The notes under the pieces are model-generated. The model did not search any database. It worked only from the letters and a program-made list of their open reading frames with translations, and had not been told where the DNA came from. A DNA stretch of 64,000 nt, from the NCBI GenBank assembly GCA_025765615.1, contig JAIVFJ010000009.1:558001-622000 (forward strand). The letters are read 5' to 3'. Positions 20,710 through 64,000 of this stretch are shown here, piece by piece. The translations under genes and the position numbers were made by a program. Origin of the DNA: Zopfochytrium polystomum (taxonomy: Eukaryota; Chytridiomycota; Chytridiomycetes; Chytridiales; Chytridiaceae). Within the stretch, counting starts at the first letter, position 1; each line of letters opens with the position of its first letter.

Positions 20710-21418
20710 GGCTGCATTGTTGGAGGTTTTTTTTTTTTTTTTTTTTTTTTTTTCTTCTTTTTTTGGATCGTGTTGGTTGTGAGGAAGGTAGAAACGCGGG
20801 CACCAGACCTTTTCTCTTTTCTCACGACATTCTGCGCAGGTTTCCCTAATGTCTTTTTGGTTTGGGGGCTGGGCGTCTCAAGTTTTCTTAGATTAGGGTC
20901 TGTGCGAATGTTAACTTTGGGCTGCGGAGTTCTTGAGAGTGAAGGTCTTTTGTGCTCGATCCAAGTAGAGAGCGTCGTGGGTGGGTCGCGTCCGTCCCTT
21001 TTATTCATTCCAGAGTTCTTTTGGTCAAGGTCCTCGGCCTGGCTTCTTGTTTTTGAAGTCCTATCAACGTCGTTCTTGATAAGCGTCAAAGTTCCGGGTC
21101 ACCTTCGGTAGCACTTCCGTCCGAGAAAGGTGTGCAAGGAACGCTGGATTCCGCATCAATCAAAAAAAAGGGTGGGTTTGAACGAAAAATAGTGCAACCG
21201 GTCACCCAAAAACTCTCCTCCTCCGTTCGCGACGAATCCTTTTCGCAAAACTTCCTTCCACCAAATGCCCCCCTTCTCAATGCTTAAGAAAGTGGAACGG
21301 CTCGGTGAGCGCACTTCCGAAAGATGGGAGGACATACTATCTCCTTCGCACGCTCACGCTCTGGAGTGTGCCATGCTCACTCAGAGTTATCGAAACAATA
21401 GTGGGCGTAAGAACCCTT

Positions 21419-21488
21419 GCGTCAGCCGGGAATCGAACCCGGGGCCGCTGCGTGGGAGGCAGCGATTTTGCCACTAAACTACTAACGC
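21419..21488 (-). tRNA. tRNA-Gly (CCC), copy 1
   Basis: Minus strand. The acceptor stem GCGTTAG pairs with CTGACGC; the anticodon stem GCTGC/GCAGC encloses the loop CTCCCAC (anticodon CCC); the T arm is CCGGG-TTCGATT-CCCGG. 70 nt, no intron. Identical to the copy at 26007-26076. Confidence 0.93.
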
Positions 21489-25070: not shown

Positions 25071-26006
25071 TTCAGTGGGTAGCAGGCGATGCTGATGCGA
25101 TGCGATGCGGGCGGGGGCGGATGTGCGTGGGGCTCACCCAGCGGCGGCAGAGTAAACTCCGCTTTCTGGTTGGTGGTGTGGTGCAAATACAAGTATGTCG
25201 CGATGCAAAAATAAATGGCGCAATCTTTTGCTGCCGCCGGCCCTCGTTCGCGCAATTGCAATATTTCCTCGAAACAACACCGAGCCCGCCATCGCGGAAG
25301 CGCGGGACTCGCGGAGCCTCCGACTGCCTGCCGAGGCAGCGTTATCTCCATTCGTTGCAAATGTGCTCCTTTTGATGGAGGAATTCGAGATTGCAGATCA
25401 CGTCAGGAGGTCTGCGGAGCGAAAGCGCCACTGCTCGCGGGCGGGTGGGGCGCGGGTCAACACTGCGAATGATGCGCAATAATATTTATTTCCTCTTATC
25501 CGCCGTTCTTTCATAGATCCCATTCCAACCACTGCGGCGGAGTATTCAGTAATTGGTGGGGTGGCTATCGCTGGGAGGCTGGCGGGGTTGGCGACGAGTC
25601 CAGGCAAGGTTTGGCGTGCTTTGCGCTTCCCCCCAAAATAATTGGTAGATCGCCTGGTGAGAAGGACAAAGCGTCCTAGGTCTACTACTCCATGCGACTG
25701 GTAGAGAGGATCGAACGCCAACCAGTACCATAGTTTCAAGCGCACGAGATCCGATATGGTTTGAGCTTTCCAGCAGCGACACAGTGCCTTTGGGCCTCCA
25801 TTTGAACACTTCCCCTTCGCAGATATCCTGCAACCACAGATTGTCAGAATTGATGACTTTCGTTTGCAAACAAGCACAATTTGTTTAATCGGGGTCTAAC
25901 AAATTTTAGATTCGACATTTGCTAACCATGCGCTCAGCAGAGGTTCCCCGAAATACTGAAATCTCTGCTCTCGTTCGCCGCACCACAGGCTGAACGAGGC
26001 ACAGGT
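25071..26006. other. Intergenic, with possible decayed coding pieces
   Basis: Minus-strand open stretches near 25546-25869 read INSDNLWLQDICEGEVFKWR in one frame and continue in another. No domain recognised; possible old relic. Confidence 0.35.
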
Positions 26007-26076
26007 GCGTCAGCCGGGAATCGAACCCGGGGCCGCTGCGTGGGAGGCAGCGATTTTGCCACTAAACTACTAACGC
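26007..26076 (-). tRNA. tRNA-Gly (CCC), copy 2
   Basis: Same 70-nt sequence as 21419-21488, same strand, about 4.6 kb away; the flanks show no similarity. All arms pair as in copy 1. Confidence 0.93.
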
Positions 26077-34998: not shown

Positions 34999-35070
34999 AG
35001 CAGCGTAGTGTAGTGGAAGCACGTTGGGCTCATAACCCAAAGGTCGAACGATCGAAACGTTCCGCTGCTA
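34999..35070 (+). tRNA. Initiator tRNA-Met (CAT)
   Basis: AGCAGCG pairs with CGCTGCT, giving the A1-U72 pair typical of eukaryotic initiators; the anticodon loop CTCATAA sits on TTGGG/CCCAA; the T loop ATCGAAA has the initiator form (A in place of T54). 72 nt with discriminator A. Confidence 0.92.
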
Positions 35071-35540: not shown

Positions 35541-35622
35541 GTCCTGTTGGCGGAGTGGTTAACGCGGTGCCCTGCTAAGGCATTTCCCTTTGGGAGCGCA
35601 GGTTCGAATCCTGTGCAGGACG
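35541..35622 (+). tRNA. tRNA-Ser (GCT)
   Basis: Acceptor GTCCTGT/GCAGGAC; anticodon loop CTGCTAA (GCT); a long class-II variable arm (TTCCCTTTGGGAG); T arm CAGGTTCGAATCCTG. 82 nt. Confidence 0.94.
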
Positions 35623-47934: not shown

Positions 47935-48008
47935 GCTACCGTGGCGCAACTGGTTAGCGCGTGCGGCTGTTAACCGCAAGGTTGGTGGTTCAAGTCCACC
48001 CGGTAGCG
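47935..48008 (+). tRNA. tRNA-Asn (GTT)
   Basis: Acceptor GCTACCG/CGGTAGC; anticodon stem TGCGG/CCGCA with loop CTGTTAA (GTT); T arm GGTGG-TTCAAGT-CCACC. 74 nt with discriminator G. Confidence 0.94.
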
Positions 48009-57900: not shown

Positions 57901-58578
57901 GACGCTGCGCTCGCGGCTGCAGATCATCACGCAGGAGCCCGTCCTGTTCGCCGGCACTGTCCGCTTCAACCTCAACATCGAGGAGCGCTGCGTAGATGCC
58001 GAGATCTGGGCCGCGCTCGACTCCGCAGGGTTGAAGGACGCCGTGGCGGAGATGCCGGGGAAGCTGGATGCGATGGCCGAGGAGGGCGGAGCAACCTGTC
58101 GGTCGGGCAGAGGCAGCTGATGTGCTTGTGTCGGGCAATGTAAGAGGGGAGCGGGCGGGTGGTTCTGTAAACTCTGTCCGCCATCCCCTTGCCGTCGGGC
58201 TATTTTATTTCAAGTCTGTCTGACGTTCACAACACTTCCAACCCGAAACCCCGCCCACCCCACAGCCTCAAAAAGTCCAAGCTCCTCTTCCTCGACGAGG
58301 CGACGGCCTCCGTCGACCGGCGATCCGCGCGCACTTTGCGGACGCCACGGTCGTCTCCGTCGCACCGGCTTCACACTGTGGCGGGCTTTGACCGCGTGCT
58401 CGTGTTGGACGGCGGGCGCGTCGCCGAGTTTGACGCGCCAGCCGCGCTGCTGGATAAACCCAAGAACGCCGAGGGGGCCGGCGGAGTGTTTCGGAGCATG
58501 GCGGAGGCGGCGGGTAAGGAGAACTTTGAGGCGCTGAGGGACGCCGCGAGGAAGGGATTCCGCGTCAAGGAGGACTGA
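54915..58578 (+). pseudogene. ABCC (MRP-type) transporter relic
   Basis: Plus-strand pieces keep the ABCC order: TMD1 loop APIQKKLYGASDARLKAIRE near 55060; NBD1 GKSSLLSAIIGEMTPVA near 55465 and GRVAYAPQQPWIVTDTVE; the NBD1 signature region is missing; ARAVYDDANIF, an intron-like GTAAGG...AAAAAG, then DDPLSALDARVGTAVF and TVVLVTRQLHFLPFADHIAV near 56035-56190. TMD2 follows with SPLNAHMSETLAGLPTIRAF and a TAA at 57182. NBD2 has a Walker A with Leu where Ser/Thr is required (GRAGSGKLTL near 57790), TLRSRLQIITQEPVLFAGTV, a frame-shifted LSVGQRQLM near 58095, and LFLDEATASVD. Deletions, the stop, the shifts and the Walker A change indicate a dead copy. Confidence 0.75.
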
Positions 58579-59642
58579 AGTAAGGTAATGGTGCACTGGT
58601 CACAGGGTAACGCTTTAATGGAAATCGACTTCTTTTTTTCTTTCTTTTTTGTTCGTAAAGCCCTGCATGCAAGTTCCTGTTCCTTCCACGACCCCTCTTG
58701 GCTCTCCCTCTCATCAGAATTATGTTTGTCGTGCAGTACTACAGTAAAATGTGTACGAACGAAAGAAAACAAAACAAGCTTCCCGCACAAACATGTACGT
58801 GCGTGATAAATAAAGGTGTTCGCTCAAGTGTGGGTTGCACGCAATGGAGAACTCTCCAACCTGGAAAAAAAAAAGGAAAGGAAAAAAAAGAAAGAGAAAA
58901 TTTTCGTCGACAAAGGTGAGAGGAGCCAGGCATTGGGCGACGCACCCTTCCCCCGTTGCAGGGTAGCCGCCACCACCACCGACGTTCTGGACACATGGAG
59001 GCTCAGATGGATCGGGCGACGCTGGATCGCATCCTCCCCGAATCATGATCTGCCCCATCACAGACTCGGCCCGCCGGCCACGTTGTGGGGTTGGGCGATG
59101 CTGGATCGGACAAACCGCCCCCATGGCTCGGTCGAATAGATGTTCCGGGACACAAATGACGAGTGAGTGAGTCACCTCCATTCGCTGTTTAGATATTAAG
59201 CAACTGACCAGTGGACCGCACCGCTTCACACCCCCTCATCCCAGCACTCCTCCAAAATCCCCTCTCTTCAAAAGTGTCGAAATTTCGCAACTGTATGATC
59301 CATGATTAACTGTGGTAAGCAATTGCAGGGAAGGGGGGGCGATTGACTGATATTGACTGATGAAATTTTCGACCACTTCTTTGTTGTCACGTATTTGTAA
59401 CCATCCAAACGCCTCAACAGTCTCCACCCACCGAGTATCTGTCTCCATCAACATTTTCTTGACCATCTTTTGCACTGATCACAGGACAAGTTGACGAATG
59501 AATGCACTTAATAAGTGCTCTACTTCCAAATTCCTGAGCGTCTCCTACACTCTCCCCACTTCAAGCATTAGTTTACCCTCCCAAATCTAACACTCAAGTC
59601 CTCTTTGCAGAACCATATCACAGAGTACGCTTTCAGAGAATA
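58579..59642. other. Intergenic upstream of the NLR gene
   Basis: No supported gene. Composition shifts from GC-rich to AT-richer near 59200. This region should hold the NLR promoter; no clear TATA box or regulatory motif was recognised. Confidence 0.5.
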
Positions 59643-62600
59643 ATGACCAGTCAAGCAACTGCTTGGACTGTGACCTTTGTGCATGATGGCCTTGGAAGGA
59701 AGGTCCGCATTCCGGCAACCACTGACTTTCGTGGGCTGCATCAGCTTGTTTCTGCCAAATTCCAGACCTCTTTTGCCAAAGAGTTGGTGTATGTGGACTC
59801 CGCCACCAACGATGAAACTGTCCTTGACGAGGATGATGATCTACCCAGTCTGCTTTCTCAGAATTTCAAGTGGAAAGTAAGAACCTTTGTGTATTGCCTG
59901 CACTTCTTTCTTTGTTGCATCTTCTATTTGTTCTCACAATTGTGCAGGTGGTTGGTGCTATGAACTCCAGCCCCACTGGAACCACTTCTGCTGCTGCTGC
60001 TGTCACAACTCCAGAGGTTAATCCAGAGAGCAATGTGACGAAGTAAGTGCAAATGCTCCTCCCAATTTCTCTTTCTTCACCTGACATTGATCATCCTATG
60101 AACCTTCACAGATTTGTGACCGAAGCCAGAGAAGTGTACAGCCGCCGCAAGACTGATTTGAAGACTCCAATCATTAGTCCAGATATTTCGCTTCCCATTT
60201 CCAGCTTGCCTAAATTGGAGAAATGGTTGACTCCTTTCTCTGATTTGATGGATATTGAGAGGGAGGCTCTCCTGAAGGACGTCCTTCCTGGATCAAGGCA
60301 GTGGCTGTTGAAGAAAGTTTTTCAGTTCTTGTCTCCAGATGATGCTGCAGCAGCCAACCCCAACAGGGTGATGTGGTTGAAAGGTGTTGCTGGTATTGGC
60401 AAGTCTGTAATGGCTGCCATGGTTTCCAGGGAGTTGCAAGCCCAGGGCATGCTGGGTGGCCTGTTCTTTTGCAAGCATGATGACAAGCGTCGCAGCAGTG
60501 CACGCAACCTGGTCTTGACTTTGGTGTTTGGTCTTGCAAAGTTCAGTTATCAATTTGGAGAGATCCTGCTTCAAGTCAAGCAAGACAATCCAGATATTCT
60601 GTCCAAATCTGTATTTGAGATGATGAAAGTTTTGCTTGTTCAGCCATTGGAGAAGGTTGTTGCTGCCAGAAAGCTGGATACACTGGTGGTACTGGTTGTC
60701 GATGCCCTTGATGAATGCAGTGTTGTTGGGAAGAGGAATGAGATTCTTTCAGTATTTCAGGAGCTGAACAGGCTGCTTCCTGGTAATGTGAAGATGCTGG
60801 TGACTGGACGACCTGAAGTAGATATTGTGAAAGCCTTTAAGAAGATTCCATTTGAAGAGATTGAGCCAACGGCAGATGAGAACACTCAGGACCAGATTGA
60901 GTTCACAAGAGATTTCCTCAGGTCTTCAAATGCTGAGCAACCTGTTGTTGATGAGGGGTCTGAGATTCTGGTGTCAAGGTCTGCTGGAATATTTGTCTGG
61001 CTTGTGACTGCTTGCACTTATCTGTGGAAATTAGAGACTGAAAAAGTCACTATTGAGAAAATTAAAGACCTTCCTGACGGTGACAAGATGGATGGATGCA
61101 TTGACTCAATGTATGACAGAATATTCAATGGCATCCTCCAATTTATCAGAGGGAGTCATTTGGAAAATCTTCTTCCTGCTGTGCTGTCCACCATTGTTCT
61201 TGCCTATGAGCCTCTAACTGCTGCTGCAGTCGTATCTCTGCTGGACAAGGAGGAACCTGAAAATGTCATGACGTGCATCCGCATGCTTGATCCCATTCTT
61301 GTGCTTGATGGTTCAACCATGAAGATTAGGATTTTCCACAATTCTGTCAAGGACTACTTGACAACTCCAGAAAGATGCAAGCTGTCTGTTCAGATTGACC
61401 TCAAAAGCATCCACTCTGAACTTGCAAGTGTGTGCATCAGTGCAATGAGCAAAAATCTGAAATTTAATATGTGTGACCTGCTATTCTCTGATTTCTACTC
61501 TGAGATCCCTGATTTTGATGAGAGAGTGGAGAAGGGAGTCCCTGAGCCTGTCGGATATGCGGTGAAGCACTTCTGGGAGCATTGCTTTGATTCCTCAGTG
61601 GAAACTACAGGCAAGACAAATGACAAGGAGGAGAACTTGAAGAAAATTGCAGAGGCAACCTCTCCCATACAAGGCACAAAGGCCAAAGAAATCAAGTCCA
61701 TTTCCAGCTCCTTCAAGAGGAAGGACTGGGCAAAACATGAGTCCGAATTCAGTGCTGAGTTGAAGGAAGGTTCAGTCGAGGGTGCTGCGCCTGTGTCTGT
61801 GACTTCTATCAGGAAAGTATTTCAGATTGACGAGACACTGTTGGCTGAATTAGAAGCTCTTCTTGTGCAACATGGACATCATTACCTTGAAGCATGCAGT
61901 TTGATTGATTCACTTACTTTGGTGATTCCAGCCATGACCAAGCTCCAGAGTCTGGTCACTATTCCTGGAAAAAAACGATTGCACACCCTTATGGAAGACA
62001 TGAAAAGGGTTGTGCAAAAGTTTCTCATTCCACTGAAGGCATCTGCGTTGCAAGTTTACTTCACAGCTGTACCATTCTCCCCAAGTGACTCTGAATTTTT
62101 TAAAACATTTGTCCAGAATGTGCCTGGAAGTGTGTCATGCCCTAAAGTTGTAAAAGGGCAACCAAAATCTTGGTCTTCCTGTTTAAATATTCTGGAAGGA
62201 CACTCTGGTTTTGTCGAATCTGCAGCATTCAGTCCTGATGGGCAGTTTGTTGTGTCTGGAGGTCGGGACAAGACAGTCAGGATTTGGAATGCTTCCACTG
62301 GCCAGGAGCTGCATAAGCTGGTGGGACACTCTGATTTTGTCAAATCTGCAGCCTTCAGTCCTGATGGGCAGTTTGTTGTGTCTGGAGGTCGGGACAAGAC
62401 AGTCAGGATTTGGAATGCTCACACTGGCCAGGAGCTCCGTAAGTTGGTGGGACACTCTGAAGTTGTCAAATCCGCAGCCTTCAGTCCTGATGGGCAGTTT
62501 GTTGTGTCTGGAAGTGAAGACAAGACAGTCAGGATTTGGAATGCTTCCACTGGCCAGGAACTGCATAAGCTGGAGGGACACTCTGAATTTGTCACATCGG

Positions 62601-64000
62601 CAGCATTCAGTCCCAATGGGCAGTTTATTGTGTCTGGAAGTGAAGACAAGACGGTCAGGATTTGGAATGCTTCCACTGGCCAGGAGCTCCGTAGGCTGGA
62701 GGGACACTCTGAAATTGTCGAATCTGCAGCCTTCAGTCATGATGGGCAGTATGTTGTGTCTGCAAGCGAAGACAAGACAGCCAGGATTTGGAATGCTTCC
62801 ACTGGCCAGGAGCTGCATAAGCTGGTGGTACACTCTAGGACTGTCAACTCCGCAGCATTCAGTCCTGATGGGCAGTTTGTTGTGTCTGGAAGTTCTGACA
62901 ATGCAGTCAGGATTTGGAACGCTTCCTCTGGCCAGGAGCTGCATAAGCTGGTGGGACACTCTCATGTTGTCGACTCTGCAACATTCAGTCCTGATGGGCA
63001 GTTTGTTGTGTCTGGAAGCGATGACGAGACAGTCAGGATTTGGAATGCTTCCACTGGCCAGGAGCTGCATAAGCAGGAGGGACACTCTGATAAAGTCACA
63101 TCTGCAGCGTTCAGTCCTGATGGGCAGTTTGTTGTGTCTGGAAGTGTTGACAAGACAGTCAGGATTTGGAATGCTTCCACTGGCCAGGAGCTGCATAAGC
63201 TGGAGGGACACTCTGATTCTGTCAGGTCTGCAGCATTCAGTCCTGATGGACAGTTTGTTGTGTCTGGAAGCGATGACGAGACAGCCAGGATTTGGAATGC
63301 TTCCACTGGCGAGGAGCTGTGTAAGCTGGAGGGACACTTTGATGTTGTGAACTCTGCAGCATTCAATTCTGATGGCCAGTTTGTTGTGTCTGGAAGTGGA
63401 GACAGTACAGTCAGGATTTGGAATGCTTCCACTGGCCAGGAGATGCATAAGCTGGTGGGACACTCTTCTGAAGTCTACTCTGCATCATTCAGTCCTGATG
63501 GGCAGTTTGTTGTGTCTGGAAGTTGGGACAAGACAGTCAGGATTTGGAATGCTTCCACTGGCCAGGAGCTGCATAAGCTGGTGGGACACTCTAAGTCTGT
63601 TGAATCTACAGCCTTCAGTCCTGATGGGCAGTTTGTTGTGTCTGGAAGTGAAGACAAGACAGTCAGGATTTGGAATGCTTCCACTGGCCAGGAACTGCAT
63701 AAGCTGGTGGGACACTCTGACTTTGTCAAATCCGCAGCATTCAGTCCTAATGGGCAATCTGTTGTGTCTAGAAGTCGGGACAAGACAGTCAGGATTTGGA
63801 ATGCTTCAACAGGCCAGAAGTTGCATGATCTGGCGGGGTTTTCTGCATTTAGTGATGATGTCGCTGCTCCAAGCATGTCACACAATTGCAGTGCCTGGAT
63901 TTGGACAGGAGAGCCGCTGCAGAGTAAATCTGTGATAAAAAATGGTGTTTGGTTCATCTTTGATGTCGCAAAAGTCTGTTTCTGGCTTCCGCCCGAGTTA
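59643..64000 (+). CDS. PB1-NACHT-WD40 NLR-type receptor (runs off right edge)
   Basis: Exons 59643-59876, 59948-60042 and 60112-64000 (open), phases agree; at least 1406 aa. Residues 7-78 form a PB1/ubiquitin-like domain: WTVTFVHDGLGRKVRI with a basic cluster, then LVYVDSATNDETVLDEDDDL, an OPCA-type acidic motif. Exon 2 is a Thr/Ala/Ser linker. A NACHT NTPase follows, with Walker A GVAGIGKS (201-208), Walker B LVVDALDEC (304-312) and a sensor-like VTGRPEVD. A helical region with FHNSVKDYLTTPERC spans up to 800. From 804 there are 13 WD repeats of exactly 42 residues, then a degenerate blade. In fungal NLRs, ligand binding by WD repeats drives NACHT oligomerisation and the N-terminal domain signals, often for nonself recognition. 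A PB1 head is unusual. Confidence 0.88.
62192..63829 (+). repeat. 13 tandem 126-bp WD40-repeat units
   Basis: Exactly 13 x 126 bp in frame with no indel. The consensus unit reads L(V/E)GHSxxVxSAAFSPDGQ, then FVVSGSxDKTVRIWNASTGQ and ELHK. Differences concentrate at position 2 (V or E), the two residues after GHS, the residue after the next V, and the residue before DKT. The nucleotide backbone is nearly identical between units, which implies recent duplication or ongoing homogenisation. Because all units share the same length, the other frames also stay open, so long shadow frames on both strands here are not genes. Confidence 0.95.

What the first reader, a model, noticed from the sequence alone, without database searches (positions are those of the whole stretch)
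59643..64000. NLR with a PB1-like N-terminal domain instead of a usual fungal head
The architecture read from the spliced frame is PB1-NACHT-WD40. Known fungal NACHT-WD40 proteins mostly start with HET, HeLo/HELL, Goodbye, patatin or phosphorylase-type heads. PB1 domains oligomerise head-to-tail (p62, Cdc24/Bem1), so an NLR with both a basic face (GLGRKVRI) and an OPCA-like acidic motif (LDEDDDL) could signal by PB1 filament growth or recruit a PB1 partner. That would be a signalling mode not typical for fungal nonself-recognition receptors.
Basis: partly seen in the sequence, partly recalled or inferred. Interest (0 to 1): 0.88.

Follow-up and report, generated by a model that had tools for sequence, protein, structure and literature searches.

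The report
PB1-headed fungal receptor missing its TIR
The genome of a chytrid fungus holds at least 75 gene loci in which a predicted PB1 clustering domain, a TIR domain and an immune-receptor-type NACHT domain follow one another, and the gene found here is a close relative that appears to have lost its TIR domain, so it would likely have to act through its TIR-bearing relatives.

Summary
The architecture is real. The gene (exons 59643-59876, 59948-60042, 60112-64078, the stop lying beyond the window) encodes 1431 aa: PB1-like head, NACHT (NPHP3_N), WD40. The genome is that of the chytrid Zopfochytrium polystomum. The head alone scores below Pfam's PB1 cut-off (17.0 against 23.6 bits), but 33 of 37 representative heads of its family match PB1, and the window head models as a PB1-like beta-grasp (pLDDT 90). 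None of the 37 matches Crinkler.

Of 116 head matches in the genome, 75 are followed by a TIR domain and then NACHT; the close relatives C397 and C270 carry the TIR, and the window copy has an in-frame deletion of it. Such loss appears to have arisen at least twice among seven close copies. The two faces are half right: the first OPCA acid is kept in 72 of 72 distinct heads, the type-B lysine is absent (0 of 72), and the tandem basic pair important for PB1 filaments is kept in 60.

Best reading: a TIR-less sensor that likely co-assembles through PB1 with TIR-bearing siblings. Main rival: a decaying copy. New variant of a known kind.

The parts
59643..59876 (+). Exon 1: PB1-like head (residues 1-78)
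59877..59947 (+). Intron 1 (GT-AG, 71 nt)
   Evidence: same position as intron 1 of deposited model P0001
59948..60042 (+). Exon 2 (95 nt): start of the linker exon fused to the end of the last TIR exon
60005..60012 (+). Approximate junction of the TIR deletion (852 nt fewer between the two intron ends than in C397 and C270)
60043..60111 (+). Intron 2 (GT-AG, 69 nt)
   Evidence: same position as the last intron of P0001
60112..64000 (+). Exon 3: NACHT and WD40 part; continues to a stop at 64078 outside the window
60290..60811 (+). NPHP3_N / NACHT NTPase (residues 170-343)
   Evidence: NPHP3_N E 1.4e-25, above its cut-off
60383..60406 (+). Walker A, GVAGIGKS
   Evidence: read from the sequence; motif recalled
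60683..60715 (+). Walker B, LVVLVVDALDE
   Evidence: read from the sequence; motif recalled
62198..63830 (+). WD40 repeats: 12 complete units of 42 aa and a further one; variable mainly at unit positions 4, 5, 7 and 23

Best explanation
The gene encodes a PB1-NACHT-WD40 receptor-type protein that appears to have lost the TIR domain found between PB1 and NACHT in its closest relatives, and it likely signals by co-assembling, through PB1 and NACHT, with siblings that still carry the TIR. Shown: the architecture, the large PB1-TIR-NACHT family in the same genome, the in-frame absence of the TIR exons, the kept OPCA acids and tandem basic pair. Inferred: the WD40 repeats would bind a ligand, ATP-dependent NACHT oligomerisation would follow, PB1 domains would stack front to back, and the TIRs of the recruited siblings would then be brought together and cleave NAD+ to cause cell death. 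The window protein would be the sensor or seed and not the executioner.
Against: No expression, binding or activity data. The type-B beta-1 lysine is absent in all 72 heads, so the basic face is weaker than in p62 or NBR1. Of six short-gap TIR-less loci only two (window, C257) keep an open frame of 1000 aa or more around NACHT, against 52 of 76 TIR-bearing NACHT rows (75 loci, C47 counted twice; Fisher p 0.17), which hints at decay. Private changes on the window's NACHT branch lean to synonymous (18 N, 13 S, ratio 0.41, p 0.015), but the truncated copy C63 leans more so (8 N, 14 S), so this does not tell live from decaying; the head alone gives 3 N and 3 S. Further deletion products (C59, C72) show that the family loses parts often. 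The TIR model is of middling confidence (68.7; the other four models 50-57) and Foldseek gives it no match at E <= 0.001, although its top 17 rows are TIRs, best E 0.033. In-frame joining of two deletions is expected by chance once in nine.
Confidence: 0.45

Rival explanations
1. Decaying copy: the TIR loss is a step of pseudogene formation, and the still-open frame is only young.
For: Four of the six short-gap TIR-less loci have an open frame under 1000 aa; C79 is a 99.8% copy of the window gene over 2200 bp that is cut off inside the NACHT exon; C63 ends just before the WD40 part; many head matches are fragments or deletion products. No deposited protein corresponding to the window gene was among the 12 hits.
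Against: The window copy keeps 1431 codons, Walker A and B and 12 complete WD40 units without a stop; the excess of short frames is not significant (p 0.17), and 24 of 76 TIR-bearing rows are short as well.
Confidence: 0.3
2. One reading: the window PB1 signals on its own, by polymerising or by recruiting a PB1 partner outside the family (for example the NBR1-like PB1 or tail-anchored PB1 proteins of the same genome).
For: The genome encodes such PB1 proteins; OPCA acids are kept in the window head and could dock a lysine-bearing PB1.
Against: The same head sits in front of a TIR in at least 75 sibling loci, so siblings of the same type are the nearest candidates; no gene joining this head to another kind of domain was found among the heads that could be read on.
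Confidence: 0.13
3. Brake: a TIR-less member poisons or titrates TIR-bearing assemblies and dampens the response.
For: Same PB1 and NACHT without the putative effector.
Against: Nothing in the sequence separates a seed from a brake.
Confidence: 0.1
4. The head is another ubiquitin-like fold (Crinkler, RA, UBL), not PB1.
For: By structure alone RA, FERM and UBL chains tie with PB1 within one Z unit.
Against: By sequence PB1 is matched by 33 of 37 heads; TUG-UBL1 and Ufm1 by three each, RA by one and Crinkler by none; no Crinkler match in the genome, although the control was silent too; OPCA-type acids at the expected place.
Confidence: 0.02

Closest known systems
AsTIR19 of Arachis stenosperma (PMC9786959, passages read): N-terminal PB1_UP2 with TIR and NB-ARC, a truncated plant NLR with a potential integrated PB1
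   Same: N-terminal PB1 together with TIR and an NLR NTPase, as in the window gene's siblings
   Different: A plant gene, NB-ARC and not NACHT, described as truncated; two proteins (AsTIR19 and AsTIR57) reported with PB1, against 75 loci here; the window gene lacks the TIR
Fungal NACHT-WD40 NLRs such as HET-E, HET-D, HET-R (HNWD) of Podospora anserina
   Same: NACHT followed by WD40 repeats with high internal identity and a few variable positions
   Different: HNWD proteins carry a HET head (PMC12881547, passages); here PB1 with TIR in siblings and PB1 alone in the window gene
TIR-domain NLRs of Chytridiomycota, mentioned in one sentence of PMC9815663 (section 17)
   Same: TIR plus NLR in the same phylum; P0007 of Nowakowskiella has NPHP3_N and WD40 and a TIR_2 match just under the cut-off (25.8 against 28)
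   Different: 'PB1' has 0 occurrences in that paper's main text; the P0007 N-terminus does not match the PB1 head
PB1 filaments of p62/SQSTM1 and AtNBR1 (PMC6978347, passages)
   Same: Fold, OPCA acids, two basic residues in strand beta-2
   Different: Beta-1 lysine missing; the window pair is R-K, not R-R; fused to an NLR
SARM1 / TIR-1 (oligomerising SAM domains beside a TIR)
   Same: As a way of working only: an extra clustering domain next to a TIR
   Different: Different clustering fold, no NACHT; comparison from recall apart from the TIR fold match

Membership tests
PB1 domain (PF00564) | Score over Pfam's curated cut-off for the window head alone | tested here: not met
   17.0 bits against 23.6; 15.9 in a 109-aa context
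PB1 domain (PF00564) | Homology shown through close family members over the cut-off | tested here: met
   19 heads of the same family are over the cut-off, e.g. C143:11166, 64% identical to the window head; 33 of 37 match PB1 at E <= 1
PB1 domain (PF00564) | Beta-grasp fold of the PB1 type | tested here: met
PB1 domain (PF00564) | Type A: OPCA acidic motif | tested here: met
   first acid 72 of 72; an acid in the middle part 55 of 72; three or more acids in the second cluster 65 of 72; all three parts 51 of 72; window YVDSATNDETVLDEDDDL
PB1 domain (PF00564) | Type B: beta-1 lysine | tested here: not met
   K in 0 of 72 distinct heads, R in 3; the two comparison PB1 exons C2 and C8 have K there
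Filament-forming PB1 (p62, TFG1, AtNBR1) | Tandem arginine in beta-2 | tested here: inconclusive
   two basic residues in 60 of 72, R-K in the window head; whether R-K suffices is not said in the passages read
Filament-forming PB1 (p62, TFG1, AtNBR1) | Polymerisation in vitro | not testable with these tools
   needs purified protein
Fungal STAND/NLR protein | NACHT-type NTPase with Walker A and B | tested here: met
   NPHP3_N 90.9 bits over cut-off; motifs read. PF05729 itself 25.3 against 26.7
Fungal STAND/NLR protein | C-terminal superstructure-forming repeats | tested here: met
   WD40 PF00400 559 bits; 12 units of 42 aa
Fungal STAND/NLR protein | Role in nonself recognition or cell death | not testable with these tools
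   needs genetics in the fungus or a heterologous host
TIR-NLR | TIR domain in the window gene | tested here: not met
   no TIR match; head-to-NACHT gap 234 nt against 579-1449 nt in the 75 TIR-bearing loci
TIR-NLR | TIR domain in sibling genes | tested here: met
   P0001 TIR_2 31.2 bits, cut-off 28; the shorter models P0014 and P0015 reach only 17.6; fold ties to RUN1, RPP1, SARM1 by VIA, model pLDDT only 68.7, Foldseek best E 0.033
TIR-NLR | Catalytic glutamate / NADase activity in sibling genes | tested here: inconclusive
   E of the LLE motif invariant in 23 of 23 aligned TIRs; its match to the catalytic Glu of plant TIRs is from recalled motifs, activity not tested
Crinkler (PF20147) | Pfam Crinkler match in the head | tested here: not met
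   none of 37 heads; none in the genome, but the control genomes were silent too

The most novel reading that the evidence does not exclude
A chytrid runs a split, inflammasome-like system built on PB1: TIR-less PB1-NACHT-WD40 sensors nucleate PB1 filaments onto which dozens of PB1-TIR-NACHT-WD40 siblings assemble, so that one ligand recognised by one diversified WD40 array switches on a shared polymer of TIR enzymes. PB1 filament growth would then be a further polymer logic for fungal NLR signalling, beside amyloid motifs, and the TIR deletion would be a route by which executioner receptors turn into sensors.
Probability: 0.2. Interest if true: 0.86.

Novelty: new variant of a known kind. Interest (0 to 1): 0.62.

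Why it matters
Characterised fungal NLRs come mostly from Dikarya (recalled), and a 2014 survey reported no NLR hits in chytrids (PMC4986451, passages). Here a chytrid genome carries a large family that couples a filament-type PB1 to a TIR and an NLR, together with natural TIR deletions. That gives a test bed for how a clustering domain and a TIR work together, for whether effector-less receptors act through effector-bearing relatives, and for an evolutionary parallel with the PB1/TIR/NB-ARC protein reported from a wild peanut relative (PMC9786959, passages).

Tried and rejected
Crinkler head: no match; alone proves nothing because its controls were silent. 'PB1 replaces the usual head': rejected, since siblings have PB1 and TIR. 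'Three independent TIR deletions': reduced to at least two, because C63 differs from the window type by what looks like a further 12-nt loss between two CCAGAG repeats and shares the neighbouring Asn codon; C144 may be another loss but was judged by distance only. A stand-alone effector with this head as partner: four divergent heads that had no listed TIR or NACHT match (C110, C113, C428, C40:146858) have TIR-like exons downstream when read by eye; the 22 heads with neither are treated. PB1 head in another genus: head/TIR searches returned only Zopfochytrium proteins (1 and 4 hits), with only about 8000 candidates each scored; the N-terminus of the Nowakowskiella protein P0007 does not match. 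PDB profile search with the TIR alignment: no hit at E <= 1. First TIR alignment A2 was misaligned and dropped. Telomere repeats: an 18-base TTAGGG pattern had no match in 121 loci, so nearness to contig ends (KS p 0.006 for 53 heads on 35 contigs over 200 kb whose length I had seen) is not shown to be subtelomeric. A first figure of 49 and 44 bits for the match of the head profile to the PB1 exons C2 and C8 was dropped: those two exons were inside that profile; the figures now given (27.8, 23.0) come from a profile without them.

Counting limits: one search gave 118 rows; two rows that are exon 2 of C9 and C79 were dropped, leaving 116, of which two at C17 lie side by side and may be one locus. 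The TIR list used held the 150 listed of 193 matches, so TIR absence is overstated: of the nine head+NACHT rows without TIR, C11 and C14:528974 do have a TIR exon (loci L055, L054), and of the 22 with neither six of the 18 that I could read on do. Seven NACHT rows or more belong to heads found only with the second query. A second, divergent head query adds 17 heads, 133 in all, still a lower bound. Distinct-head counts (72) come from 77 full-length heads in the fetched loci, not from all 133. Frame lengths are the tool's stop-to-stop frames around the NACHT match, not gene models.
Full report
What is there. Two GT-AG introns join exons 59643-59876, 59948-60042 and 60112 onward into one frame of 1406 aa up to the window's end, which stops at 64078 on the same contig (1431 aa). 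Pfam finds NPHP3_N/NACHT and WD40. The head alone reaches only 17.0 bits against PB1's cut-off of 23.6. Walker A GVAGIGKS and Walker B LVVLVVDALDE are intact (read). The window is G000:C9:558001-622000 of an 80.16-Mb assembly. The organism is Zopfochytrium polystomum, Chytridiales: eight of its nine deposited proteins met here (P0001, P0002, P0004, P0005, P0013-P0016) lie on contigs with exactly the lengths of C18, C118, C19, C11, C428, C669, C14 and C110 (for P0003 I saw no contig of that length), and P0001 is reproduced exactly from C18. No protein identical to the window gene was among the 12 hits.

The faces. In 72 distinct heads the first OPCA acid is present in all, three or more acids of the second cluster in 65, a tandem basic pair in beta-2 in 60, and the type-B beta-1 lysine in none. 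In the passages of PMC6978347 that I read, the tandem arginine of beta-2 contacts the OPCA acids and carries a large part of the filament interface energy, assisted by the lysine. The head therefore keeps most but not all of a polymerising AB-type PB1. Whether it polymerises is not known.

The missing TIR. P0001, a deposited sibling, has a TIR_2 domain over its cut-off between head and NACHT (31.2 bits). Joining the coordinates of the head, TIR and NACHT searches gives, for 116 head rows: 75 with TIR and NACHT downstream, 10 with TIR only, 9 with NACHT only, 22 with neither. The head-to-NACHT distance is 579-1449 nt in the 75 and 234 nt in the window gene. Three of the nine have gaps over 1 kb and two of these do have a TIR exon, which leaves six short-gap, TIR-less loci: C9 (window), C79, C63:260114, C257, C182 and C144. 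Of the 22 with neither, 18 could be read on: six have TIR pieces, C59 jumps from the linker to the second half of NACHT and WD40, C72 jumps to WD40, and ten show nothing of the family in the 0.03-2 kb held. A TIR-bearing sibling, C175, splices without a stop to 1660 aa of PB1-TIR-NACHT-WD40 (splice sites placed by homology to P0001). The TIR model is of middling confidence (68.7); Foldseek finds no match at E <= 0.001 but its top 17 rows are TIRs, and the 50 VIA rows shown are TIR-bearing entries, led by RUN1, RPP1 and SARM1 (by title, except that for 8fex the TIR is inferred from the system). The Glu of the LLE motif is invariant in 23 of 23 rows. That this Glu is the catalytic one is inferred from recalled plant motifs.

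How it was lost. In a subclade of seven (C9, C79, C63, C257, C182 without a full TIR; C397, C270 with it) exon 2 of the window gene is the start of the linker exon joined in frame to the end of the last TIR exon. C257 and C182 share another junction, which keeps the C-terminal part of the TIR stretch, also in frame (exon 251 nt; window 95, C63 86). C63 is best read as the window type with a further 12-nt loss. So the TIR was probably lost at least twice here, each time in frame, which chance alone would give once in nine. C79 is a 99.8% copy over 2200 bp that is cut off in the NACHT exon.

Alive or decaying? Of the six short-gap loci only the window gene and C257 have an open frame of 1000 aa or more around NACHT, against 52 of 76 TIR-bearing NACHT rows (75 loci; Fisher p 0.17). 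For life: the full frame of the window copy and its intact nucleotide-binding motifs. Undecided: private NACHT changes lean to synonymous on the window's branch (18 N, 13 S, ratio 0.41, p 0.015; head 3 N, 3 S, not significant), but the truncated C63 leans even more (8 N, 14 S, p 5e-5), and the branches mix time before and after the losses. Pairwise dN/dS against TIR-bearing C397 is 0.31 for the head and 0.36 for NACHT, not higher than between the TIR-bearing C397 and C270 (0.58, 0.41).

The sensor end. Twelve WD40 units of exactly 42 aa are nearly identical except at positions 4, 5, 7 and 23. Strong internal conservation of fungal NLR repeats is described in PMC4986451 (passage), and for HNWD genes concerted evolution with repeat exchange in PMC12881547 (passage). 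This fits a diversifying recognition surface, by analogy.

How it likely works. The most economical model is co-assembly: the WD40 part recognises, NACHT oligomerises, PB1 stacks with the PB1 of TIR-bearing siblings, and their TIRs are activated by proximity. Everything after the anatomy is inference. The strongest rival is that the copy is decaying.

What is known. 'PB1' has no occurrence in the main text of the four fungal NLR papers in which I looked for it (PMC4986451, PMC9815663, PMC10197012, PMC12881547), and searches for PB1 domain with NLR/fungal/TIR, with NACHT, and with TIR-NBS-LRR/integrated domain returned 3, 4 and 1 papers, none of which looked from listing, or for PMC9786959 from passages, like a fungal case (the library holds open-licence papers only). 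PMC9815663 states that TIR was reported in NLRs of Chytridiomycota (section 17). PMC9786959 reports a protein with N-terminal PB1_UP2, TIR and NB-ARC in a wild peanut relative (passages). So TIR-NLRs in chytrids and PB1 beside TIR-NB in a plant have precedents; a large PB1-TIR-NACHT-WD40 family in a fungus, and TIR-less PB1-NACHT-WD40 derivatives of it, were not found in print by these searches.

Noticed in passing
window 58318-59642: The upstream flank, including the end of an ABC-transporter-like frame (read by eye), is shared at about 82-92% with TIR-bearing and TIR-less siblings (L012-L016), so the genes seem to have spread as larger duplicated blocks; the C79 copy shares only the last 215 bp.
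   Followed up: partly
L041 (C59:26650) and L031 (C72:101227): Two further deletion products: a head and linker joined to the second half of NACHT plus WD40, and a head followed by WD40 with no NACHT in the held sequence. Frames not checked.
   Followed up: partly
G000:C18:514975 and C18:529002 (L023, L024, L102): Two head+TIR genes with identical heads lie 14 kb apart; the first (P0001) stops early in NACHT and is deposited as a 469-aa protein.
   Followed up: partly
L120 (C428:20916-21131) and P0013: The deposited model P0013 (two TIR_2 stretches and NPHP3_N) starts at the first TIR; a divergent PB1-type head exon lies just upstream, so the model may lack its first exon. The second TIR near the C-terminus is unusual.
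   Followed up: partly
L003, L005, L006, L007: PB1 proteins over Pfam's cut-off with a hydrophobic C-terminal stretch, apparently tail-anchored (by eye); one lies on the window's contig at C9:36348, outside the window.
   Followed up: no
L004 (C115) and L008 (C248): Near-identical PB1 exons with a downstream ZZ-like zinc finger, resembling NBR1/p62; ZZ read by eye, not by a profile.
   Followed up: no
P0007, Nowakowskiella sp. JEL0407: Protein with a TIR-like part, NPHP3_N and WD40, and a 288-aa N-terminal part that has no significant Pfam family and no match to the PB1 heads.
   Followed up: partly
window 21418-21488, 26006-26076, 34999-35070, 35541-35622, 47935-48008: Five tRNA genes, two of them with the same score.
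   Followed up: no
53 heads on 35 contigs over 200 kb whose length was seen: Heads lie nearer to contig ends than uniform placement would give (KS p 0.006); this may reflect repeats that break the assembly.
   Followed up: partly
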